DNA from: a virus
DNA length: 64,000 nt
Strand: one strand, 5' to 3'
IMG/VR virus record: IMGVR_UViG_3300017743_000004
Location: 1-64,000 of that record
Every line of letters begins with the position of its first letter. Within the stretch, counting starts at the first letter, position 1. Positions 24,983 through 36,924 of the stretch are shown here, piece by piece. Made by a program: the position numbers and the translations under genes. A model generated the notes under the pieces. It was not told the origin of the DNA and searched no databases. It was given only the letters and a program-made list of their open reading frames with translations.

Positions 24983-25303
24983 ATGAAAATATCTGAACTT
25001 AGAAAACTTATCAAAGAAGAAATTCTTAAAGAAATGGCTGTTAATGAAATGGCTAAAATTCAAGGTGAATTAAAAACCGCAATTGAAAAAGTCATTGACG
25101 GAAATGAAGATCTTACTGGATTGGAACTTAAAAAGAAAATCAGAGGAAACGAAAAAGTAAAAGATATTCTTGATAAGAATGATGAAGATCTTTTTGATAA
25201 TCAACTTAATAGATTTATTAAAGAAAAAAAGGGCGAATTAGAGCTTAAAAAGAGAGGTAGAAAGAAAGGAGGTAAAAATAAGCCGAAGGATGAAAAAAAG
25301 TGA
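24983..25303 (+). CDS. Small basic protein with capsid-targeting-like leader
   Basis: The protein is 106 aa. The leader MKISELRKLIKEEILKE is followed by Met, with two (L/I)-K-E sites. The rest is helical, with a strongly basic tail (KKRGRKKGGKNKPKDEKK) suited to binding packaged DNA. It overlaps the next gene by 14 nt. Confidence 0.5.
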   Translation: MKISELRKLIKEEILKEMAVNEMAKIQGELKTAIEKVIDGNEDLTGLELKKKIRGNEKVKDILDKNDEDLFDNQLNRFIKEKKGELELKKRGRKKGGKNKPKDEKK

Positions 25304-25602
25304 TTTAAAATCCTATATTAGGGAAAATATCATCGAAATTCTTTCTGAGGAAGAAGAGGAAACAGAAGGTACAATTAAAGCTAAAGCTGACGCTTACAGA
25401 GATTTAGCGAATGCTAAAAAAGAAGCAGGTATTGAGGAAGAGGTGTCTCCTACTATTCGTCAAAAAAAAGGAGACCCAACGCCTCCTAAACGCTGCTTTA
25501 AAAAAGTATAAAAAAGCTGAGTCTGAAGAAGACAAGGAAAAGTTTTTAAAGAGAATAAAACGATACACCACTATCCAAAATGAGTTGGAAAGAATCAAAT
25601 AG
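25290..25602 (+). CDS. Small leader-bearing protein interrupted by a frame change at an A8 run
   Basis: The start frame gives MKKSDLKSYIRENIIEILSE plus an acidic helix and stops at 25511 after an out-of-character tail (GDPTPPKRCFKKV). Removing one A from the A8 run at 25462-25469 joins it to an open frame encoding KKETQRLLNAALKKYKKAE and ending at 25602, which gives one continuous helical protein of about 104 aa. The cause could be a sequencing or assembly indel, transcriptional slippage, or a real mutation. The leader resembles those of the packaged proteins. Confidence 0.5.
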
Positions 25603-26146
25603 AATAATTGTTTTTCTATTAGGTGTAGCAGGTGGGTTTTTTTTAGTAGATAAATGTAGCGCACCCACTGTTATAACTAATACAGAGATTGAATATAAGT
25701 GGGATACCATACAAACAGAGGTATCCCATTATGTTCCTAAACCTGTCCCTTATCCTGTTGAGGTAGTAAGATGGGATACATTTAAAACTTCTATAGATAC
25801 TGCCTTTATTTTAAAGGATTATTTCTCTAAAATATTTTATAGAGATTCTATAGTTCAAGATTCTGTCTCTATCATTATCGAGGACACTGTCACTCGAAAC
25901 CGAATTGTATCTCGTTACCTAAATTATACCCTAAGGTACCCAACTAAAATTGTTACAAACGAAGTATATGTTCCTAAAAACGAGTACTTTTATGGAGCAC
26001 AACTTGTATCAGGGAGGGAAGGATTTGCGTATATAGGCCCTGAACTTAGTTTAAAAACAAAAACAAATAATTTATATCAATTTGGGATAGGAATAAATAA
26101 CCAATTAGCTCCTGTTATATCCCTTTCTATTAACTGGAAGTTTTAA
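25580..26146 (+). CDS. Membrane-anchored envelope protein, possible unimolecular spanin
   Basis: The protein is 188 aa. An N-terminal hydrophobic helix (IIVFLLGVAGGFFLV) is followed by Cys. A long periplasmic-type region rich in strands follows (YVPKPVPYPVEVVRWDT, IVSRYLNYTLRYPTKI). The C-terminus ends in alternating hydrophobic strands and a final Phe (LAPVISLSINWKF), as in Bacteroidetes outer-membrane proteins. Its position next to the terminase and its topology would fit a u-spanin linking inner and outer membranes in lysis. No lysis gene is certain nearby, so this is a hypothesis. Confidence 0.45.
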   Translation: MSWKESNRIIVFLLGVAGGFFLVDKCSAPTVITNTEIEYKWDTIQTEVSHYVPKPVPYPVEVVRWDTFKTSIDTAFILKDYFSKIFYRDSIVQDSVSIIIEDTVTRNRIVSRYLNYTLRYPTKIVTNEVYVPKNEYFYGAQLVSGREGFAYIGPELSLKTKTNNLYQFGIGINNQLAPVISLSINWKF

Positions 26147-27729
26147 TGGCCCAAGAGAATATTAAAAAAATAATTGCCGCTGAATATATAAAATGTGCAA
26201 AAGATCCTGTATATTTTATGCGCAAGTATTGTTATATTCAACACCCACAAAGAGGTAGAATCTTATTCCATTTATTCCCATTCCAGGAAAAAGTATTAGA
26301 TTTATTTCAAAATCATAATTACTCAATTATAAACAAATCCCGTCAGTTAGGTATCTCTACTTTATCTGCAGGATATTCTTTATGGTTAATGTTATTCCAT
26401 AAGGACAAAAACATTCTTTGTATAGCTACAAAACAGGAAACAGCTAAAAACATGGTAAACAAGGTAAAGTTTATGTATGATAACTTACCTTCCTGGTTAA
26501 GAGTAGACTTTGCAGAAAATAACCGTTTAAATTTAAGATTAACAAACGGGTCTCAAATTAAAGCAACATCAGCATCTTCAGATGCAGGTAGATCAGAAGC
26601 CGTTTCTTTACTACTAATTGATGAGGCTGCCTTCATTGAAAATATTGGTGAGATATGGGCTTCAGCTCAACAAACCCTAGCTACAGGTGGTGGGTGTATT
26701 GCCATTTCAACCCCTTATGGAACCGGAAATTGGTTTCATCAAACATGGGTTAGAGCAGAACAACAAGACAACGAGTTTATCCCCATCCGTTTACCTTGGT
26801 ATGTCCACCCCGAACGAGATGAAGATTGGAGAAAAAATCAAGATAAATTACTAGGAGACCCTAAAATAGCATCCCAAGAGTGTGATTGTGATTTTAACAC
26901 CTCTGGTGATACTGTTTTTTCAGGGGAAATGATAGAATTTTATTCTGAAACATCACAAAAAGATCCTCTTGAAAAAAGAGGAGCAGATCAAAATCTTTGG
27001 GTATGGGAACCTGTAGACTACTCTAGGGATTATATGGTAGTAGCAGACGTAGCTAGAGGTGATAGTAAAGACTTTTCAGCATTCCATGTAATAGATGTTG
27101 AATCAAACACCCAGGTAGCTGAATACCGTGGACAATTATCAACTAAAGAATTTGGACATTTACTAGTGGGTATTGCTTCTGAATACAATGAAGCTTTACT
27201 AGTAATAGAAAATGCTAATATTGGATGGGCTGTTTTACAGGTAGTAATAGATAGAGGATATAGAAACATTTATCAATCACCTAAAAGTGGAGATATAACA
27301 TCCGATTCGTATTTTGACCAATATAATAACAACTCGGCCTTAGTGCCTGGTTTTATAATGTCATTAAGAACTCGTCCTTTGGTGATACAAAAATTTAACG
27401 AGTATTTTATTGATAAATCAGTAACAATTAATTCAAAAAGATTGTTACAAGAAATGAGAGTGTTTGTATGGAAATCGGGTAGAGCGGAAGCTCAACAAGG
27501 TTATAATGATGATTTAGTTATGAGTTTTGCAATTGCAATGTATATGAGAGACACAGCATTTAAATTTAAACAACAAGGTTTGGATTTAACTAAGGCTGCC
27601 TTAAATAATATTACTACAAACAAAACAAATTATAATTTTGCTTATAACCCTAACAAGTATAGTAACGTTCCTAATCCATATGAAATCAAAACAAAGGATG
27701 GAAACGAATCAATAGACTGGTTATTATAA
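26146..27729 (+). CDS. 17: Terminase large subunit (gp17-like)
   Basis: This is the 527-aa packaging motor ATPase and nuclease. A degenerate Walker A (SRQLGIST, residues 65-72) precedes Walker B LLLIDE (residues 155-160) and the coupling region ISTPYGTGN. The C-terminal RNase-H-type nuclease shows VVADVARGDSKDFSAFHV, holding the first acidic metal ligand, and a later NDDLVMSFA with another acidic pair. The length is slightly below T4 gp17. It overlaps the preceding gene by one base (TAATG) and precedes the portal gene in the canonical order. Confidence 0.93.
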   Translation: MAQENIKKIIAAEYIKCAKDPVYFMRKYCYIQHPQRGRILFHLFPFQEKVLDLFQNHNYSIINKSRQLGISTLSAGYSLWLMLFHKDKNILCIATKQETAKNMVNKVKFMYDNLPSWLRVDFAENNRLNLRLTNGSQIKATSASSDAGRSEAVSLLLIDEAAFIENIGEIWASAQQTLATGGGCIAISTPYGTGNWFHQTWVRAEQQDNEFIPIRLPWYVHPERDEDWRKNQDKLLGDPKIASQECDCDFNTSGDTVFSGEMIEFYSETSQKDPLEKRGADQNLWVWEPVDYSRDYMVVADVARGDSKDFSAFHVIDVESNTQVAEYRGQLSTKEFGHLLVGIASEYNEALLVIENANIGWAVLQVVIDRGYRNIYQSPKSGDITSDSYFDQYNNNSALVPGFIMSLRTRPLVIQKFNEYFIDKSVTINSKRLLQEMRVFVWKSGRAEAQQGYNDDLVMSFAIAMYMRDTAFKFKQQGLDLTKAALNNITTNKTNYNFAYNPNKYSNVPNPYEIKTKDGNESIDWLL

Positions 27730-27741: not shown

Positions 27742-29604
27742 ATGGCTCAGAAGGACCTTTTTTCAAGATTACAAAGACTATTCTCTACTGATGTAGTAAT
27801 CCGTAATGTAGGCGGTAACCTCAAAGTAGTAGATACAGATCATATTCAGACCTCAGGTGAATATGCTACGAATTCCTTAATGGATAGGTATTCAAGATTA
27901 TATAAAAACCCTGCAGCAACCTCTTTATATGGTCAACAATTTAATCTTAATTATCAGTATCTAAGACCACAAATTTATTCTGATTATGATGCTATGGACC
28001 AAGATGCTATTATTGCATCTGCCCTAGATATCATATCAGATGAATCTACCCTCCAGAATGAAATGGGTGAGGTATTAAGAATTAGATCTAGTGATGATTC
28101 ACTACAAAAGATCCTATATAATTTATTTTATGATGTTTTAAACATTGAATTTAATCTTTGGAGTTGGATTCGCCAAATGTGTAAGTATGGTGATTTCTTC
28201 TTAAAACTAGAAATCTCAGAAAAATTTGGTGTTTATAATGTCATCCCATATTCTGCTTTCCATATTGAAAGAAAAGAAAATTTTGATATTGAAAACCCAT
28301 CAAAAGTAGAATTTTTATATAACCCCCAAGGAAATTATGGTGGTGGGTCAGGGTATACTTACACACCTAACCAAGAAGAAAAAAATAGAATTGTATTTGA
28401 TAACTACGAGATGGTTCACTTTAGATTATTAACTGATCTAAATTATCTCCCTTATGGTAGATCCTATATTGAACCCGCTCGTAGACTATTTAAACAATAT
28501 ACTTTAATGGAGGATGCTATGTTAATTCATAGAATTGTTCGTGCTCCTGAAAAACGTATTTTTTACGTAAATGTAGGTGGTATCCCACCAAACGAGGTAG
28601 AGCAGTTTATGCAAAAAACTATCTCAACTATGAAGCGTACTCCTCACGTTGATCAAGAAACTGGGGAATATAACTTAAAGTATAATATGCAAAACCTATT
28701 GGAAGACTTTTATATTCCAATTAGGGGAAATGATACAACTACAAAAATTGATACTACTAAAGGTTTAGATTACGATGGTATCCAAGACGTAGAATATTTA
28801 AGAGATAAATTATTTGCTGCTTTAAAAGTACCTAAAGCATTCTTAGGGTACGATGAAAATGTAGAAGGTAAAGCAACATTAGCAGCAGAAGATATTAGGT
28901 TCGCTCGTACAATCGATAGAATCCAAAGAATTATAGTTTCCGAATTATATAAAATAGCCTTCATTCACCTCTACACCCAGGGATATGATGAGGATTCATT
29001 GACAAATTTTGAACTTTCATTAAATACTCCTTCAATCATTTATGATCAGGAGAGAATTGCATTAATGAAAGAAAAGGTAGAATTAGCTTCATCTATGATG
29101 GAGAATAATTTATTACCTACTGATTGGATTTACGATAACATATTCCACTTATCAGAAAATGAATTTAACGAATATAGAGATCTGATTGTACAAGATGCTA
29201 AACGTAAGTTTAGATTAAATCAGATTGAAAGTGAAGGTAACGATCCTGTTACAACAGGTAAATCATATGGTACACCACACGATTTAGCCTCTTTATATGG
29301 TAAGGGAAGGTACGAAGACAATTCAGTACCTGATGGGTATGACGAAAAAGAATCTCTAGGTAGACCTAAAGAAAAAGTCACTAAAAGAAATACCCAAGAC
29401 GATAACTTTGGTAAGGATAGAATTGGTAGCAAAGGCAACAAAGTTGACGACCAACCAGATGCAAATTTAAACTTTAAAGGGGGTTCTCCACTCGCTTTAG
29501 AAGTTTTAGAAAAAAATAGATCATTAATAGAATCCCTAAAAACTAGAAATAATAAAAAATCTAACGGTGATTCATTGCTAGATGAATCTCAAATTAGGGA
29601 ATAA
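27742..29604 (+). CDS. 20: Portal vertex protein (gp20-like)
   Basis: The protein is 620 aa, in the size and position typical of T4 gp20. Recognisable family features are PQIYSDYDAMDQDAIIASALDI near residue 75, the helical IEPARRLFKQYTLMEDAMLIHRI stem region, and RAPEKRIFYVNVGGIPPNE. The C-terminal 100 residues are charged and low-complexity. It forms the dodecameric ring through which gp17 pumps DNA and to which the neck attaches. Confidence 0.92.
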   Translation: MAQKDLFSRLQRLFSTDVVIRNVGGNLKVVDTDHIQTSGEYATNSLMDRYSRLYKNPAATSLYGQQFNLNYQYLRPQIYSDYDAMDQDAIIASALDIISDESTLQNEMGEVLRIRSSDDSLQKILYNLFYDVLNIEFNLWSWIRQMCKYGDFFLKLEISEKFGVYNVIPYSAFHIERKENFDIENPSKVEFLYNPQGNYGGGSGYTYTPNQEEKNRIVFDNYEMVHFRLLTDLNYLPYGRSYIEPARRLFKQYTLMEDAMLIHRIVRAPEKRIFYVNVGGIPPNEVEQFMQKTISTMKRTPHVDQETGEYNLKYNMQNLLEDFYIPIRGNDTTTKIDTTKGLDYDGIQDVEYLRDKLFAALKVPKAFLGYDENVEGKATLAAEDIRFARTIDRIQRIIVSELYKIAFIHLYTQGYDEDSLTNFELSLNTPSIIYDQERIALMKEKVELASSMMENNLLPTDWIYDNIFHLSENEFNEYRDLIVQDAKRKFRLNQIESEGNDPVTTGKSYGTPHDLASLYGKGRYEDNSVPDGYDEKESLGRPKEKVTKRNTQDDNFGKDRIGSKGNKVDDQPDANLNFKGGSPLALEVLEKNRSLIESLKTRNNKKSNGDSLLDESQIRE

Positions 29605-29624: not shown

Positions 29625-30497
29625 ATGTCAATAAAGCATTCAAAATATAAGAATACGGGTATTTTATTTGAACTTTTAGTAAGAAGGGTTACAGCTGATA
29701 CCCTCAACGAAAAGGAATCCCCCGCATTAAAATTAATTAAAAAATATTTTTCTAAAACAGAATTATCTAAGGAGTTAAAACTTTACGAATCTGTATCTAA
29801 ATCAAACGGGATATCAGAAAACCAAGCTAACTCTTTAATTCAAACTTTATTAGAAAATTCTAAAAGACTAAATAGAAAAACTTTAAAGTCTGAAAAGTAT
29901 AACTTAATTTCTGAGATTAAGGGTTTTTATAATCTAGATGAGTTTTTTAAAACTAAACTTCCTAATTATAAAACATTTTCCTCATTCTTTACACTTTTGG
30001 AAATTTACAACACCAATCTCTATATCAACCCAGATGAGATTGTTAAAAACAAACAAACCCTTCTAGAACAAATTTGTAAAGCAAATATCTCTGAAAATTC
30101 AGTTAAAGAAAACTTAGTAAATGAGTTTCAAACATACGATAAAGATTTAAGATTACTTACTTATAAACTCTTATTAGAAAAATTTAACACCAAGTACTCT
30201 AACCTTAATAGATATCAGAAACAAATCTTAAAAGAATTTATTACCTCTGTAGATTCTACTCCTAAGTTAAGAGAAATTTATAATTTAAGATCTTCTCAAT
30301 TAAAAGCAATTTTAGAAACATTTAATAAAAAAATTACAGATAATGTAATTAAAATTAAATTGAATGAAGTTGTGTCTTTATTAGAAGTTAAAACTAATAA
30401 ATGTTCTGTTAAATCAAATGATATTTTTAATTTACTTCAATATTTTGAATTAATTGAAGAATTAAATAAAATTCATGGACCTAAGAGATCGAATTAA
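29625..30497 (+). CDS. Prohead-region helical protein between portal and protease
   Basis: This 290-aa, Lys-rich, all-helical protein begins MSIKHSKYKNTGILFELLVRR. The same YKNTGILFELLVRRVTADT block occurs in other marine T4-like phages, always unnamed and near the portal gene. Position suggests a prohead core or portal-associated assembly role like T4 gp67/gp68, but there is no sequence evidence for that identity. It overlaps the next gene by 23 nt. Confidence 0.55.
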   Translation: MSIKHSKYKNTGILFELLVRRVTADTLNEKESPALKLIKKYFSKTELSKELKLYESVSKSNGISENQANSLIQTLLENSKRLNRKTLKSEKYNLISEIKGFYNLDEFFKTKLPNYKTFSSFFTLLEIYNTNLYINPDEIVKNKQTLLEQICKANISENSVKENLVNEFQTYDKDLRLLTYKLLLEKFNTKYSNLNRYQKQILKEFITSVDSTPKLREIYNLRSSQLKAILETFNKKITDNVIKIKLNEVVSLLEVKTNKCSVKSNDIFNLLQYFELIEELNKIHGPKRSN

Positions 30498-30720
30498 AGA
30501 AATAATAAAAAATAGATTCCTTACCAAAGAAATCTCTACAACAGGTACAGGCGCTACTTTTACCCCGGGCACGGGCGAACAATATGCAACCCCCAAAGCA
30601 TTTAGAAAAAAAGGTACTAAACCTGTAATATATTACTATAAATTAGGCTTTAAACCCGTTAACAAAACAAAGTTACGCAAAGCAGCGAAGGGAATAGAAG
30701 TAGTCGATATTTATAAGTAA
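30475..30720 (+). CDS. 81-aa protein sharing the mature N-terminal motif of the major capsid protein
   Basis: Residues about 22-40 read STTGTGATFTPGTGEQYATP, closely matching the sequence right after the predicted processing site of the capsid protein (SLTGTGGTFAAGTGEQYAS). The preceding FLTKE resembles a protease site. The C-terminal half is basic and ends VIYYYKLGFKPVN ... VVDIYK. It may be a head-associated peptide occupying the same binding site as the capsid N-arm, or a substrate of the same protease. The one-base overlap (TAATG) links it to the next gene. Confidence 0.6.
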   Translation: MDLRDRIKEIIKNRFLTKEISTTGTGATFTPGTGEQYATPKAFRKKGTKPVIYYYKLGFKPVNKTKLRKAAKGIEVVDIYK

Positions 30721-30956
30721 TGGGCTACGGCTATAAATTAAAGGAAAACCAAGATCCTAAACAATTCCAACAAGAGAGAATTGAAGGATTTGAAAAAATT
30801 AGTGATAGAATGTTTGAGATTGCCTCTCTATTAAGAAAAGCAAAATTAAACACTAAACAATTTTATGAGGAAAATCCTGACTCATATAATGTTGTATACG
30901 GAACAGATTTGATTCAGGACTATTTAGAAGATATAACTACATTACTAAACAAATGA
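30720..30956 (+). CDS. Small hypothetical protein, prohead region
   Basis: The 78-aa helical protein starts MGYGYKLKENQDPKQFQQER and has YLEDITTLLNK at the end. Similar small proteins sit between portal and protease in other T4-like phages, where core proteins gp67 and gp68 are found. There is no motif beyond helices. It overlaps both neighbours by a few bases, so it is certainly part of the head operon. Confidence 0.55.
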   Translation: MGYGYKLKENQDPKQFQQERIEGFEKISDRMFEIASLLRKAKLNTKQFYEENPDSYNVVYGTDLIQDYLEDITTLLNK

Positions 30957-31786
30957 AAACAATTCAAGAACATTACATAGCTTTAAAAGAGGGAAAAACC
31001 TCTAAATCTTATTTTCATAAGTTAGCTAAATCATTATTTCCACATTTGGTATCTAACCAAAATTCATTTAATGATTCTCTTAAAATCTTAAAAAATAGAG
31101 GTATTATTACTGAAGAGGTTAAAGCCGTAGAGAAAAAAACATCTAAAGATGTAATGGATGTTCAGGCTAAGCAATACAACTATCAAGATAAAAACAATAT
31201 TGATACTGTATATGGGGCTGAATTTTTAAAGGGATTTTATGCGGAAATTAAAGACCCTGCTAATAAAGATAAAACCCCAGATGATATTAAAGAAATTGTT
31301 AGAAAAAATTTAACTAAATCTGCTACTCATTATACAGAAAATTCCGCTTTTGGAATCAAGGGTATCGGATATGGTAAAGCAGAACAACCTAAAGAAGTAA
31401 CAGGTAAATATAAGTCTTCAGGATATGGTGATTTGAAAGAATCTAAAGTTCCTACAATGACTGAACTTTTACTTGAAGGTAAAAAGAAAACAAATTCAGT
31501 AGAAGATAAATTATCCGAAATTGAAGAGAGTGGTGCAATCGTTACTTTAGAAACTCAAATCGAGGCTGTAGAAGAAATGATTGAAACAAAATGTCAAAGA
31601 TTAGAAATGATCTCCGAAGACGATAACCTATCAGAGTTAGTAGATCCAAAGAGAATTAAGGAACTGCAAAAGGAAATTAAGATCTTAGAAAAGAGAAAAG
31701 CCAAAATGCAGAAAATGTACGAAAAACTAACCGGAAAGGCTAAGAAAAAACAAATCGTAGATGAAACAAATACTGATAGAGACTAA
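30953..31786 (+). CDS. Putative prohead core protein
   Basis: The protein is 277 aa. The first 13 residues, MKTIQEHYIALKE followed by Gly, resemble the T4 internal-protein leader and end in a perfect L-K-E site. The next part is basic and helical, and the last 100 residues form a long coiled coil (LETQIEAVEEMIETKCQRLE, LVDPKRIKELQKEIKILEKRK). Position just before the protease fits a core or internal protein. It overlaps the protease gene by 26 nt. Confidence 0.55.
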   Translation: MKTIQEHYIALKEGKTSKSYFHKLAKSLFPHLVSNQNSFNDSLKILKNRGIITEEVKAVEKKTSKDVMDVQAKQYNYQDKNNIDTVYGAEFLKGFYAEIKDPANKDKTPDDIKEIVRKNLTKSATHYTENSAFGIKGIGYGKAEQPKEVTGKYKSSGYGDLKESKVPTMTELLLEGKKKTNSVEDKLSEIEESGAIVTLETQIEAVEEMIETKCQRLEMISEDDNLSELVDPKRIKELQKEIKILEKRKAKMQKMYEKLTGKAKKKQIVDETNTDRD

Positions 31787-32357
31787 TATCTTTAAACCTA
31801 CTGTTTCTATCAATGAAGGTAAAACCTCATCTGATGGAAATTTACTAGTACAAGGTATCCTTTCTACAGCCGAAAAACAAAACGGCAATGGTAGAGAGTA
31901 TCCAATGGAAATCCTTGAAAGAGAAATTAATAAATACATGGAGGTAGTTAAGGAAAACAGAGCATTAGGTGAGTTAGATCACCCTGATTCTCAAGTTGTT
32001 AACCTTAAAAACGTATCCCATAAAATCAACGATATGAAATTCGTTGGAAAAAAAGTAATGGGCACTATTGAAATTTTACCTACCCCATCCGGAAATATTT
32101 TAAAAGCACTATTTGCAAGCAACGTTCCTGTAGGAATTTCTTCTCGTGGGATGGGCTCTCTAAAACAAGTAGGAGAAGTAATGGAGGTGCAAGACGATTT
32201 CGAACTCTTATGTTATGATTTTGTCTCTACCCCTTCTAACCCAGGATCCTACATGAGTCCTTTAAACGAATCTCTTACTGAATCCAATATTTATAATAAA
32301 ACCAATTCTATCATTACAGATATTTTATGCTCTAACGATAGATGTCCAATTTACTAA
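31761..32357 (+). CDS. 21: Prohead core protease (gp21-like)
   Basis: This 198-aa serine protease of the T4 gp21 type has catalytic His74 in GELDHPDS and Ser127/Ser128 in VGISSRGMG, with the conserved GREYPMEILEREI near residue 45. The N-terminus contains SINE before Gly20, a likely autocleavage site. It would process the scaffold, the capsid protein and leader-bearing internal proteins at (L/I)xE sites. Unlike T4, an extra gene separates it from the scaffold gene. Confidence 0.9.
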   Translation: MKQILIETNIFKPTVSINEGKTSSDGNLLVQGILSTAEKQNGNGREYPMEILEREINKYMEVVKENRALGELDHPDSQVVNLKNVSHKINDMKFVGKKVMGTIEILPTPSGNILKALFASNVPVGISSRGMGSLKQVGEVMEVQDDFELLCYDFVSTPSNPGSYMSPLNESLTESNIYNKTNSIITDILCSNDRCPIY

Positions 32358-32360
32358 AAT

Positions 32361-33989
32361 ATGGCTACATTATTTGAAAGTTGTTCTGCGATTATGTATG
32401 CAGGTACTTTTTTAGGAGATAATTCCCAAAAAGGTACCTCATTTTCATTTTTACCAACTTCAGGAATTGGGGATTTTGATTATACAGGTTCTACAGGTAT
32501 TACAGGATCTTCAAGAATTAATTCTACTTTAAATTTTCAGGAATTTACTATAAATGCTACCCCTAAAATAGATTATTCTTATACAAATGAAAATTTTGCA
32601 TTTATAAGTGGGGGTGTTGTAGCTGATAAAACTATTTCTTCCTCTATTCTTCAAGGTTCATCTACAGGAAATTTAATTTTAGAGGGAGAAACTAATAATC
32701 ATTTTGTTACCCCTATTACTTTTACAACAGCAAATGTAAATGTAGCTTCAAGTTCTTTAGATAAATTTATAACTGAAGGAAACTATGATTATAATATAGT
32801 AACATTCCAAGAAGATAACACACCAGGCGAACAAGCACGTTTAGATTTTCAATTCAACGCATTTTCTGATGATGTAGAAAGAATAGTTAAAATTTCTTAT
32901 TGTGTAAGTGGAGGTTTTCCTTTTAATTCAGTTACTGCAGATAAAGCTAGAATCTTAAAAATTCAAGGCCAATCTTTTGATCAGTTTTCAAATTTAGTGG
33001 GAACCGGAGAAGATATTCTAATTAACCCTTCAGAATATACTAATGCTAAACTTGATCCTGATTCAGCTTCTATATTTGTAAGATCAGGTTTTAATAATTT
33101 AGAAGTTACAGATATCGGGGATGGTTGGTTAAGACTAGCCCACCTCTCCAGAATGAGTGGATCAGTAGGAACAAATGATGTTTTAAGAGTTAGATATGTT
33201 ACCCACACAGGCAACCCAGATGGAGGCTTAAATGTAGGAAATAATAGCCCTGGTTCTGGTTCTTCAGGGGCACCTAATGGAAGTTTTACTTCAAGTATAG
33301 CAACATTCTCAATTGCTAATTTACAGTTAGAAGTTATAGAAGATAGTATTACTGGTTCTTTATCTGGTTCAGCTGATTCTGTAAGGAATAGAAATGCCTT
33401 AGCATTCATGCCTGCTACCTCTTATATTCCAACAAGTGCTTCAGCAATTACAAAACCCTCAGAATCACTTGAATTACCATTAACTTCATCTACAATTGAT
33501 AATTTTCTTACAGATCTAAACCAAGGTACAATAATTACAAGATTTGCATGGACACCTTTATCAGGATCAGATGAAGCATCTTCTAATCACTTTGCATTAT
33601 TAAAAACAGGTTCAGCTCCATCCTCAGATTATTTAAGAATAGATGGTAGAGGAATTTATTATAGATCATCATCAGCAATATTCTCCCCATTATCTACTAA
33701 CCAATCCCAGATCCCTTATTTAACTCAATCGGGTAGTTTAACACCTACAACATATCACAATTATGCATTTACTTGGAGTGGGTCTGAAATCTCATGTTCT
33801 ATAGATAGTGGTTCAATTATAACCGCTAAAGGACCTTGGACTGGGAGTAGTGGAGAACAATTAGAATATATTACAGGAATAACTAATATTTCACATAATA
33901 CACAAGTAAGATTACAATACATTATGGTATCCCCTCATAAATTTAGTGCGGATGCTCTTAAAAATTCTACAAATACTACCATAGTTTAA
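32361..33989 (+). CDS. Fibre-like glycan-binding protein inserted in the head operon
   Basis: The protein is 542 aa. The central region has GWLRLAHLSRMSGS, ... FSIANLQLEV and ATSYIPTSASAIT, the signature of a carbohydrate-binding-like domain common in tail fibres. The C-terminal 170 residues resemble a concanavalin/LamG sandwich (FAWTPLSGSDE, YHNYAFTWSGSEISCSIDSG, QVRLQYIMVSPHKF). Low-complexity Ser/Gly linkers separate the parts. Its place between protease and scaffold genes suggests a capsid decoration or head fibre, although a tail role is possible. Confidence 0.55.
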   Translation: MATLFESCSAIMYAGTFLGDNSQKGTSFSFLPTSGIGDFDYTGSTGITGSSRINSTLNFQEFTINATPKIDYSYTNENFAFISGGVVADKTISSSILQGSSTGNLILEGETNNHFVTPITFTTANVNVASSSLDKFITEGNYDYNIVTFQEDNTPGEQARLDFQFNAFSDDVERIVKISYCVSGGFPFNSVTADKARILKIQGQSFDQFSNLVGTGEDILINPSEYTNAKLDPDSASIFVRSGFNNLEVTDIGDGWLRLAHLSRMSGSVGTNDVLRVRYVTHTGNPDGGLNVGNNSPGSGSSGAPNGSFTSSIATFSIANLQLEVIEDSITGSLSGSADSVRNRNALAFMPATSYIPTSASAITKPSESLELPLTSSTIDNFLTDLNQGTIITRFAWTPLSGSDEASSNHFALLKTGSAPSSDYLRIDGRGIYYRSSSAIFSPLSTNQSQIPYLTQSGSLTPTTYHNYAFTWSGSEISCSIDSGSIITAKGPWTGSSGEQLEYITGITNISHNTQVRLQYIMVSPHKFSADALKNSTNTTIV

Positions 33990-34126: not shown

Positions 34127-35254
34127 ATGGCTGATAAGCAATTATTAAAAGAGGCCATTGCAGAAGCTAAAACCATTAAAGAAGTTGCTATTGCAAACGC
34201 AAAAGCTGCTCTTGAAGAAACCTTCTCTCCAGTGCTAAAAGAAAAATTAGCAGCTATGATGGAAGAAGATGAAAAAATGGAAGAGGCTGATACAATGGAA
34301 GAAGCTAAAAACGAAATGGAAGAAGATGAAAAAATGGATGAAACTTATTCCTACCAAGAAGAAGGTATGGATCAGAATGAAAACATGGATGAAGCTTCTT
34401 TAGAGGAGTTATTAGCTGAACTCGAAGAAGGTGAAGACACGAACGAGGAAGATAAAGTGAACGAGGCTGAATTGGATGAAGCTGAAGGCGATATGGACCT
34501 CGAAGAAATGTCTGAAGACGAATTAAAATCATTCGTCGAAGAAGTTATTGAAGATATGGTTCAAGCTGGTGAATTAGAAGCCGGTGGTGATCCTGTTGAA
34601 ATGTCTGATGAAGAAGAAGAAGAGGAAGGTAAAGAGGAAATGGAAATGGATTCTATGGAAGAAGTTAACATTGACGAATTACTTTCAGAAGAAGACGTAA
34701 ACGAGTTTGATCTTGCAGGCGCAGAAATGATTGCTCCTGAACTTATCGGTGGCGTCATTGCCGCACTTGGAGCACTTGGATTAGGTGCAGCGATCGATAA
34801 AGAGGAACTTAAGAAAATGTCATCTGACAAGCTTAAGGCTCTTGCTGCAAAACTCGGTGTAGGTAAGAAGAACGAGGAAGTCGAAGAAGGAGACATAGAG
34901 GAAATGAAGGAAGAGTTAGATGAGTTAAAAGGTGAACTTTCCGAAGTTAACTTACTCAATGCTAAACTTCTTTACACCAACAAGCTCTTCCGTTCTAGAA
35001 GCTTAACAGAATCACAAAAAGTAAAAGTTTTATCAACATTTGATAAAGCTACTTCGGTAAAAGAAGTTAAATTAGTATTTGAGACACTCTCAGACTCATT
35101 AACTACTTCCCAGGTTGTAAAAGAAAATAAAGGTTCCGCATCTAGACCCACAGGTGGGGCTAGTAAAAATCCTCAACCGATCTTAGAATCTAACGATCAG
35201 GTTAGGAGATGGCAAAAATTAGCCGGTATTACTACCGATAAATCCTATACATAA
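34127..35254 (+). CDS. 22: Prohead scaffolding core protein (gp22-like)
   Basis: The protein is 375 aa and extremely acidic from about residue 45 to 195 (runs of Glu, Asp and Met), with helical N- and C-terminal segments (EAIAEAKTIKEVAIANAKAAL, EEMKEELDELKGELSEVNLLN, LFRSRSLTESQKVKVLSTFDK). The C-terminal helix pattern and the position immediately upstream of the capsid gene are those of T4 gp22. Multiple Glu-containing sites would allow it to be degraded to peptides by gp21. Its codons shift to G/C-ending forms like the capsid gene, suggesting high expression. Confidence 0.85.
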   Translation: MADKQLLKEAIAEAKTIKEVAIANAKAALEETFSPVLKEKLAAMMEEDEKMEEADTMEEAKNEMEEDEKMDETYSYQEEGMDQNENMDEASLEELLAELEEGEDTNEEDKVNEAELDEAEGDMDLEEMSEDELKSFVEEVIEDMVQAGELEAGGDPVEMSDEEEEEEGKEEMEMDSMEEVNIDELLSEEDVNEFDLAGAEMIAPELIGGVIAALGALGLGAAIDKEELKKMSSDKLKALAAKLGVGKKNEEVEEGDIEEMKEELDELKGELSEVNLLNAKLLYTNKLFRSRSLTESQKVKVLSTFDKATSVKEVKLVFETLSDSLTTSQVVKENKGSASRPTGGASKNPQPILESNDQVRRWQKLAGITTDKSYT

Positions 35255-35256
35255 AA

Positions 35257-36924
35257 ATGGAATTAGTAAACAACTTAGTCAACGAATCCGCAGAGTCGTT
35301 TAGAAACATGCAAAGCGACGCTGCAAGATTAGCTGGTAAGTGGGAAAAGACAGGTTTACTTGAGGGCTTAGATAATGAGCTTGAAAAGAACAACATGTCA
35401 CTTATCCTCGAAAACCAAGCTAAGCAATTATTGAACGAAAGTTCATTAACAGGTACTGGTGGTACCTTCGCAGCAGGAACTGGTGAGCAGTATGCCTCTG
35501 TAGTCTTACCTATGGTAAGAAAGATTTTTGGACAGGTAGCTGCCCAAGAATTCGTATCTGTTCAACCAATGAATTTACCTTCAGGTCTGGTATTCTTCTT
35601 AGATTTCCAATATGGAACTAGTAAGACTCCTTTCTCAGCTGGTGATTCGCTTTATGGAAACACTGGTTCCGACCAGTTCCCATTCTCAACTGCTGAATCT
35701 AATCTGAATCAAGCAAACACTGGTGGATTATATGGTGCAGGTAAGTTCTCTTACTCTACAAATAATCATACTGCTTCTACTGGTATTACTTCTGCCTCAG
35801 CAACTTTTGCAGATGTTAATTTTGACTCCAGATTATCTTCATCAATTGTAAATGGAGATATTGTTAAATTAACTGTTGGAACTGCTAGAACTACTTTAGC
35901 GGATTTAGATAAAGAAGCTGTAAGAAGCTTTATTATCTCCTCAGGTTCTAATGTTACCTCAGATAATATCCTTCCTGCTTTTACAAAGTATGATGAAGGT
36001 GCTAATACTGTAACTTTCTTTACTACTGGATCGGATATTACAATCCACCAAACTAGTTCATATGTAGTAGAATACAGTAAGCAAACCAAAGATAACGCAA
36101 GAGGTGATTTCGAAGCAGGTGCTGCATTTGCTGTACCTAATGCTCAGTCTGCTGCTAATATCTCAATCCCAGAAATTAATATCGGAATGAGATCATTAGG
36201 TATTATTGCTAAGACTAAAAAGCTGAAGGCAGTATTCACTCCTGAACTCGCTCAGGACTTGAACGCTTACCAAGCTTTAGATGCCGAAGCTGAAGTTACC
36301 AACATCATGTCTGAGTACATTTCCTTAGAAATTGACTTGGAAATTCTTGATATGTTGATGGCTGATGCTTTAACAACTGAGTTCTGGTCTGCTAAGAACA
36401 ACAGAGTAATTAATGATGCCAAGACTGCTTTCGAAGCTGAAGGAACAAACGGATTCTACAACACACAGGGTCAGTGGTTCCAAACATTAGGTACCAAGCT
36501 TCAGAAGGTATCTAACAAGATCCACCAATTAACTTTAAGAGGTGGTGCCAACTTCATGGTAATCTCTCCAACTGTAGCTACTGTTATTGAGTCAATCCCA
36601 GGATTCGCCTCAAACTCTGATGGTGATGCTGCTAACATGGAGTACGCGTTTGGTGTACAAAAGGCAGGTACTTTGAACAGCCGCTACACTGTGTACAAGA
36701 ACCCTTACATGAATGAAAATACCATTCTGATGGGTTACAGAGGTACTCAGTTCTTAGAGGCAGGTGCTGTATTCGCTCCTTATGTACCGTTGATCCAAAC
36801 TCCATTAGTATACGATCCTGACACGTTCGTACCTAGAAAAGGTCTCTTAACACGCTACGCTAAGAAGATGTTAAGACCAGAATTCTACGGTAAGGTCTTC
36901 GTGAATGGATTGAACACTCTCTAA
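35257..36924 (+). CDS. 23: Major capsid protein (gp23-like)
   Basis: The protein is 555 aa. The N-terminal delta region ends at QAKQLLNE61, a matching (L/I)xE site for gp21, followed by SSLTGTGGTFAAGTGEQYA and VVLPMVRKIFGQVAAQEFVSVQP, the family's N-arm. RGGANFMVISPTVATVIESI and the C-terminal KKMLRPEFYGKVFVNGLN are typical of gp23. It forms the icosahedral shell hexamers. Codon usage is richer in C-ending codons than in neighbouring genes, in keeping with very high expression, and a strong terminator follows. Confidence 0.95.
   Translation: MELVNNLVNESAESFRNMQSDAARLAGKWEKTGLLEGLDNELEKNNMSLILENQAKQLLNESSLTGTGGTFAAGTGEQYASVVLPMVRKIFGQVAAQEFVSVQPMNLPSGLVFFLDFQYGTSKTPFSAGDSLYGNTGSDQFPFSTAESNLNQANTGGLYGAGKFSYSTNNHTASTGITSASATFADVNFDSRLSSSIVNGDIVKLTVGTARTTLADLDKEAVRSFIISSGSNVTSDNILPAFTKYDEGANTVTFFTTGSDITIHQTSSYVVEYSKQTKDNARGDFEAGAAFAVPNAQSAANISIPEINIGMRSLGIIAKTKKLKAVFTPELAQDLNAYQALDAEAEVTNIMSEYISLEIDLEILDMLMADALTTEFWSAKNNRVINDAKTAFEAEGTNGFYNTQGQWFQTLGTKLQKVSNKIHQLTLRGGANFMVISPTVATVIESIPGFASNSDGDAANMEYAFGVQKAGTLNSRYTVYKNPYMNENTILMGYRGTQFLEAGAVFAPYVPLIQTPLVYDPDTFVPRKGLLTRYAKKMLRPEFYGKVFVNGLNTL

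What the first reader, a model, noticed from the sequence alone, without database searches (positions are those of the whole stretch)
30475..30720. 81-aa protein carries the same motif as the mature N-arm of the major capsid protein
STTGTGATFTPGTGEQYATP in this small protein and SLTGTGGTFAAGTGEQYAS right after the capsid processing site are nearly the same, and both follow a Glu-terminated helical leader. Two unrelated proteins sharing a post-cleavage motif suggests a common docking site in the head, or a processing signal extending beyond the cut. The small protein may be a capsid-arm mimic.
Basis: seen in the sequence. Interest (0 to 1): 0.7.

Follow-up and report, generated by a model that had tools for sequence, protein, structure and literature searches.

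The report
Small head protein copying capsid arm
In a large group of uncultured T4-like phages, a small protein of the head operon carries, right after a predicted protease cut, almost the same 20 residues that begin the mature major capsid protein, and the two versions change together between lineages, which suggests both plug into the same place in the phage head.

Summary
The 81-aa protein (30475-30720) and the gp23-type major capsid protein (MCP, 35257-36924) share 14 of 20 residues just after a Glu that ends a helical leader. The match is confined to that segment: hhalign probability 94.5, 27 columns. The small protein is a conserved family with hundreds of relatives, always between portal and gp21 protease. 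An IMG/VR pattern scan found the motif only in gp23-type MCPs and this family, plus one related-looking protein. Across 94 genomes the two copies resemble each other more within a genome than between genomes (p=5e-5). Sister pairs agree more weakly: 24 against 10, Wilcoxon p=4e-4. Identical residues do not share codons more than expected, so recent gene conversion is unlikely. The segment maps to the T4 gp23* N-fist. Best reading: a protease-released mimic of the capsid N-fist that docks at the same site in the head. Docking, cleavage and virion presence are inferred. One clade lost the motif from the small protein while its MCP kept it. T4 and RB49 show no such sharing.

The parts
30475..30720 (+). 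81-aa small head protein (mimic carrier), located where T4 has genes 67/68
   Evidence: ORF; relatives; synteny portal<small<protease<MCP in all genomes with each gene found; T4 gene order
30475..30531 (+). predicted 19-aa helical leader (propeptide) ending FLTKE
   Evidence: sequence; helix in the family model ends at the equivalent Glu; Glu invariant in A1 and A3
30532..30591 (+). post-cleavage module ISTTGTGATFTPGTGEQYAT
   Evidence: 14/20 identical to the MCP module; profile match prob 94.5 limited to this segment
30592..30717 (+). family-specific part PKAFRKKG...YYYKLGFKPV..., not shared with the MCP
   Evidence: alignments A1 and A3; hhalign match stops at YAT
30720..30956 (+). 78-aa ORF equal to the C-terminal helical domain of the fused (~165-aa) form found in most relatives
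   Evidence: in 58 of 65 relatives with this domain it lies in the same ORF as the small protein; helices with pLDDT about 90
35257..36924 (+). major capsid protein, gp23 family
   Evidence: PF07068 2.4e-69; phrog_138
35257..35439 (+). predicted 61-aa MCP propeptide ending LLNE
   Evidence: Glu invariant in A4; T4 gp23 loses 65 residues at the same place, PMC9958956
35440..35499 (+). MCP post-cleavage module SSLTGTGGTFAAGTGEQYAS, position of the T4 N-fist (gp23* residues 66-91)
   Evidence: alignment to gp23*; N-fist definition PMC7136217
31761..32357 (+). prohead protease, gp21 family (predicted to cut both)
   Evidence: PF03420 7.6e-28
34127..35254 (+). acidic gp22-like scaffold, lacks the module
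   Evidence: position and composition; motif absent
27742..29604 (+). portal, gp20 family
   Evidence: PF07230 3.4e-68

Best explanation
The small protein is a prohead component whose short helical leader is removed by the gp21-type protease. The cut exposes an N-terminal module that copies the N-fist module of the mature capsid protein. After maturation the module inserts, as the MCP N-fist does, into the inter-capsomer site, probably where MCP N-fists are absent or unsatisfied (around the portal, at vertices, or on the inner face of the shell), and so anchors the small protein in the head. Shown here: motif identity, near-exclusivity, constant register after a Glu, parallel change with the MCP between lineages, no sign of DNA copying, conserved position in the head operon. 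Inferred: cleavage, presence in the virion, and docking at the same site.
For: 14/20 identity, far above shuffles. Profile-profile match restricted to the post-cleavage segment. Pattern scan: 101 of 118 carriers are MCPs, 16 belong to the small family, 1 is a related-looking protein, none clearly unrelated. Own-genome similarity 0.386 against 0.277 after shuffling, p=5e-5; partial Mantel r=0.25, above all 2000 permutations; within-clade shuffles p=2e-4 at the 0.25 and wider thresholds. Sister-pair swaps 24 against 10, Wilcoxon p=3.6e-4. Lineage-specific versions occur in both proteins: IASNSYFTSGGQGENW with IASNSGFTSGGEGENH, TNQGGGTFTAGQGAQW with TSQGGASFSPGEGAQY, TGAGSSAGTFTPG with TGAGPSAGTFTPG, SVGGG..F with GTGGG..F. 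926 identical residues with 450 same codons against 510 expected. Synteny 94/94 for small-protease-MCP. T4 N-fist is ordered by inter-capsomer contacts and disordered where it faces the portal (PMC7136217). Precedent for two head proteins sharing a short capsid-binding motif: SaPI1 CpmB and 80alpha scaffold RIIK (PMC5644958).
Against: No virion proteomics, cleavage data or structure for this group was found with the tools used. One clade (L094, L100, L101, L103, L104, L107, L111, L115, L168, L256, L271) has lost the module from the small protein while its MCP keeps it, so docking is not universally needed. Coupling is clear between clades but not between very close relatives. The sister-pair sign test is only p=0.012, or 0.059 when short modules are included. 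The window's own cut site has Thr, not Leu/Ile, at P3. T4 and RB49 core proteins show no equivalent.
Confidence: 0.57

Rival explanations
1. Extended protease recognition: the gp21-type protease reads residues after the cut, and both substrates keep the same prime-side sequence for efficient or timed cleavage.
For: The module starts directly after the predicted P1 Glu with constant register (E-x-S-x-T-G) in both proteins. Coevolution with the protease would also make both change together.
Against: Other expected substrates in the same genomes (gp22-like scaffold, protease, neighbouring core-like ORFs) lack the module. Small proteins of one clade keep the E|xS context without the module. T4 and phiKZ-type proteases cut after a short motif with few other determinants (PMC9026906). 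Residues up to +20 are far for a protease site.
Confidence: 0.17
2. Homotypic contact: the small protein's module pairs directly with MCP modules (like with like, for example beta pairing), recruiting it to the shell without occupying the MCP's own pocket.
For: Glycine/serine/threonine-rich low-complexity segments, parallel change in both copies, predicted disorder of the isolated module.
Against: No direct evidence. In T4 the equivalent segment packs against four neighbouring subunits (PMC9958956).
Confidence: 0.14
3. Shared descent only: the segment was copied once between the genes, or is repeatedly homogenised by gene conversion, and has no common partner.
For: Both genes lie about 5 kb apart in one operon; the segments are clearly alike.
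Against: Synonymous codons at identical residues match no more than codon usage predicts, so recent conversion is unlikely. Independent drift from one ancestor would not give higher within-genome than between-genome similarity.
Confidence: 0.07

Closest known systems
T4 gp23* N-fist (residues 66-91 of gp23)
   Same: First 20-25 residues after the gp21 cut of the major capsid protein; same alignment position.
   Different: In T4 and RB49 no core protein (gp67, gp68, gp22) or gp24 copies it; the sequence of the segment itself differs.
T4 prohead core proteins gp67 and gp68
   Same: Small ORFs between portal and protease genes; gp67 has 80 aa, the window protein 81.
   Different: No sequence relationship (hhalign prob 0.1 and 0.3); gp67/gp68 are degraded to peptides, while here a conserved post-cut part is retained in sequence.
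T4 internal proteins with a capsid targeting sequence (IPI-IPIII)
   Same: Short N-terminal leader ending in a Glu cut site (PMC9026906).
   Different: The part after the cut mimics the MCP arm; T4 internal proteins are not reported to do so in the papers read.
SaPI1 CpmB and 80alpha scaffolding protein (shared RIIK motif)
   Same: Two head-assembly proteins share a short motif and bind the same capsid site (PMC5644958).
   Different: There the motif is C-terminal, in scaffold-type proteins, and not part of the capsid protein itself.

Membership tests
gp23 major capsid protein (for the MCP) | Pfam PF07068 match | tested here: met
   2.4e-69
gp21 substrate (small protein) | L/I-X-E before the cut | tested here: inconclusive
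   P3 is L or I in 85 of 94 relatives, V or M in 8, but T in the window type. Presence of Glu was required by the extraction script; it is also present in relatives the script missed.
gp21 substrate (small protein) | actual cleavage | not testable with these tools
   needs virion mass spectrometry
T4 gp67/gp68 family | gene position between portal and protease | tested here: met
T4 gp67/gp68 family | sequence homology | tested here: not met
   hhalign prob 0.1 (gp67) and 0.3 (gp68); no significant Pfam match
Capsid decoration or cement proteins | binding to the mature shell | not testable with these tools
   no structure or proteomics; no PDB sequence match, no confident fold match
T4 internal protein with capsid targeting sequence | short N-terminal targeting peptide removed by gp21 | tested here: inconclusive
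   a helical leader ending in Glu is present; targeting not tested

The most novel reading that the evidence does not exclude
A phage-encoded mimic of the major capsid protein's own N-fist: a small protein that, once its leader is removed, fills vacant N-fist sites (for example around the portal, where T4 N-fists are disordered, or at vertices) and whose module is kept matched to the capsid lattice by coevolution.
Probability: 0.33. Interest if true: 0.82.

Novelty: new variant of a known kind. Interest (0 to 1): 0.64.

Why it matters
It would show that a tailed phage uses molecular mimicry inside its own capsid: a minor protein copies the segment that cements the shell during expansion. It gives a function to a widespread family with no Pfam or informative PHROG assignment, and a sequence handle (a post-cleavage motif) for finding head proteins that bind the shell. 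The natural module variants also provide ready-made specificity tests.

Tried and rejected
Looking for the 81-aa protein in isolated phages by tblastn: none; distant members found by gene position and sequence in Flavobacterium phage immuto and Microcystis phage Mel-JY01. Widespread cytoplasmic motif: rejected; one relative in 84,980 genomes, on a Flavobacteriaceae MAG contig that also holds the MCP; no PDB match. Gene conversion: not supported. Homology to gp67/gp68: rejected. A third motif protein in the clade that lost it: none found. Structure: MCP model too poor to place the arm (pLDDT 54), not searched further; small-family model found no fold match. T4/RB49 core proteins against the N-fist: one marginal value for T4 gp21 (0.006 of shuffles) not repeated in RB49, taken as chance.

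Full report
What is there. The window is most of a 68.6-kb virus record and holds a T4-like head operon: large terminase 26146-27729, portal gp20 27742-29604, a 290-aa ORF 29625-30497, the 81-aa protein 30475-30720, a 78-aa ORF 30720-30956, a 277-aa ORF 30953-31786, gp21-type protease 31761-32357, a 542-aa ORF with a weak lectin-like match, an acidic scaffold 34127-35254 and a gp23-type major capsid protein (MCP) 35257-36924. T4 has genes 20, 67, 68, 21, 22, 23 in that order.

Observation. The 81-aa protein reads MDLRDRIKEIIKNRFLTKE|ISTTGTGATFTPGTGEQYATPKAF.... The MCP reads ...AKQLLNE|SSLTGTGGTFAAGTGEQYASVVLPMVRK. Aligned without gaps, 14 of 20 residues are identical. The local alignment score is 81; the next best window ORF scores 46, and 5000 shuffles reach 58. 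Shuffling only the 20-residue MCP module never gets above 54. No other window protein has the motif. A profile-profile comparison of the two families gives probability 94.5 and E 7e-8, and the match covers only the cut and the 20 residues after it.

Family and setting. The 81-aa protein has at least 376 relatives in IMG/VR. In most, the 81-aa and 78-aa ORFs are one protein of about 165 aa (58 of 65 cases), so the gene is split in the window. In every one of 94 genomes with both proteins the order is small protein, protease, MCP on one strand; the 290-aa ORF precedes it in 93/93 and the portal in 91/91. The part upstream of the cut is not constant: it may be a 13-25-aa helix, or a domain of 100-200 aa (for example L005, L125, L137-L139), yet the module stays directly after the Glu. 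The Glu was required by the extraction script, but it is also present in the unselected alignment A1 and in relatives that the script missed. The MCP segment aligns with the start of mature T4 gp23*, which is the N-fist, residues 66-91. The N-fist contacts four subunits, forms during expansion from a disordered prohead segment, and is disordered in the five subunits that face the portal (PMC9958956; PMC7136217).

Exclusivity. A degenerate DNA pattern for TGTGx[ST]FxxGxGE[NQ][YW]A was run over IMG/VR. Of 118 motif-bearing proteins, 101 are MCPs (two truncated), 16 belong to the small family and one (L193, 294 aa) is an odd protein with the same E-plus-module arrangement and a helical-looking C-terminus. 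In 84,980 cellular genomes one relative of the small protein was found, on a MAG contig that also encodes the MCP.

Parallel change. 99 distinct MCP/small pairs were extracted and 94 kept. Similarity of the two modules within a genome averages 0.386, against 0.277 (sd 0.009) when partners are shuffled, p=5e-5. With one genome per clade the excess stays. Shuffling only within clades of similar MCP body gives p=2e-4 at thresholds of 0.25 and wider, but p=0.066 at 0.15, so very close relatives carry little signal. A partial Mantel test that corrects for MCP-body distance gives r=0.25, above all 2000 permutations. On a tree of MCP bodies, swapping partners between nearest independent pairs makes the match worse in 24 of 34 pairs (sign p=0.012, Wilcoxon p=3.6e-4); including short modules it is 26 of 41 (sign p=0.059, Wilcoxon p=0.005). 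The effect therefore comes from a handful of clade-level shifts with large effect: the SNS/SGG type (7/7 genomes), the SGT-x-GEN type (4/5), the GGG long type (6/7), the TGAGxAG type (9/9, with L076 lying apart from the others on the tree), and single cases such as L078 and L118. Class boundaries were set by eye after seeing the sequences, so those fractions are descriptive.

Not gene conversion. At 926 identical residues in the paired modules the codon is the same 450 times; codon usage of the MCP genes predicts about 510. The likeness is kept at the protein level.

Exceptions. A clade of eleven extracted genomes has small proteins of the form E|MSTSAGAGAYSTPYAF, without the module, while the MCP keeps TGTG..; no other protein of those loci has taken it over. 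Immuto and Mel-JY01 have short divergent modules in the small protein and divergent MCP arms. T4 and RB49 gp67, gp68, gp22 and gp24 do not resemble their gp23 N-fist.

Mechanism. The simplest account of exclusivity, fixed position after a predicted cut, and parallel change is a common partner site. The N-fist site on the shell is the natural candidate, since the MCP copy must bind there if these phages mature like T4. The small protein would be carried into the prohead, lose its leader to the protease, and dock through its exposed module. Its C-terminal helical part (pLDDT about 90 in the family model) would then be held at the shell. Models are consistent with a helical leader ending at the Glu and an unstructured module, but the MCP model is poor. 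An extended protease site is less likely because other substrates lack the module and because some small proteins keep the cut context without it. Direct pairing between the two modules remains possible. SaPI1 CpmB and the 80alpha scaffold are a solved case of two head proteins sharing a motif for one capsid site (PMC5644958).

Limits. Cleavage, presence in virions and docking are not shown. The window's own small protein has Thr at P3. The statistics rest on alignments of 20-residue glycine-rich segments and on incomplete metagenomic contigs. Novelty is judged from a limited set of open papers and from general knowledge.

Noticed in passing
window 24983-25303 and 25290-25511: Two small ORFs start with leaders (MKISELRKLIKEEILKE, MKKSDLKSYIRENIIEILSE) very like those of small-protein relatives (L212, L180, L183, L207), hinting at a shared capsid-targeting leader for several core proteins.
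   Followed up: partly
window 16333, 17231 and 22165 (starts): Three ORFs share a second leader type, F(D/N)L.KYL....LL, followed by a Glu in two of them; possibly another targeting peptide.
   Followed up: no
L210:1561-1929, L223:3566-3931, L217, L238: Small-family proteins with a second, shorter unit: ...FDYLEE|MHYGTPHAF...EEMGY, a tandem repeat of the cut-site plus TPxAF core.
   Followed up: no
L005, L125, L137-L139: Long variants of the small protein carry an N-terminal domain of about 100-200 aa before the cut site; its fate after cleavage is unknown.
   Followed up: no
window 32361-33989: A 542-aa protein with a weak Laminin_G_3 match sits between protease and scaffold genes; possibly a surface decoration protein.
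   Followed up: no
window 29625-30497: A 290-aa protein of unknown function directly after the portal gene is conserved at the same place in 93 of 94 related genomes.
   Followed up: partly
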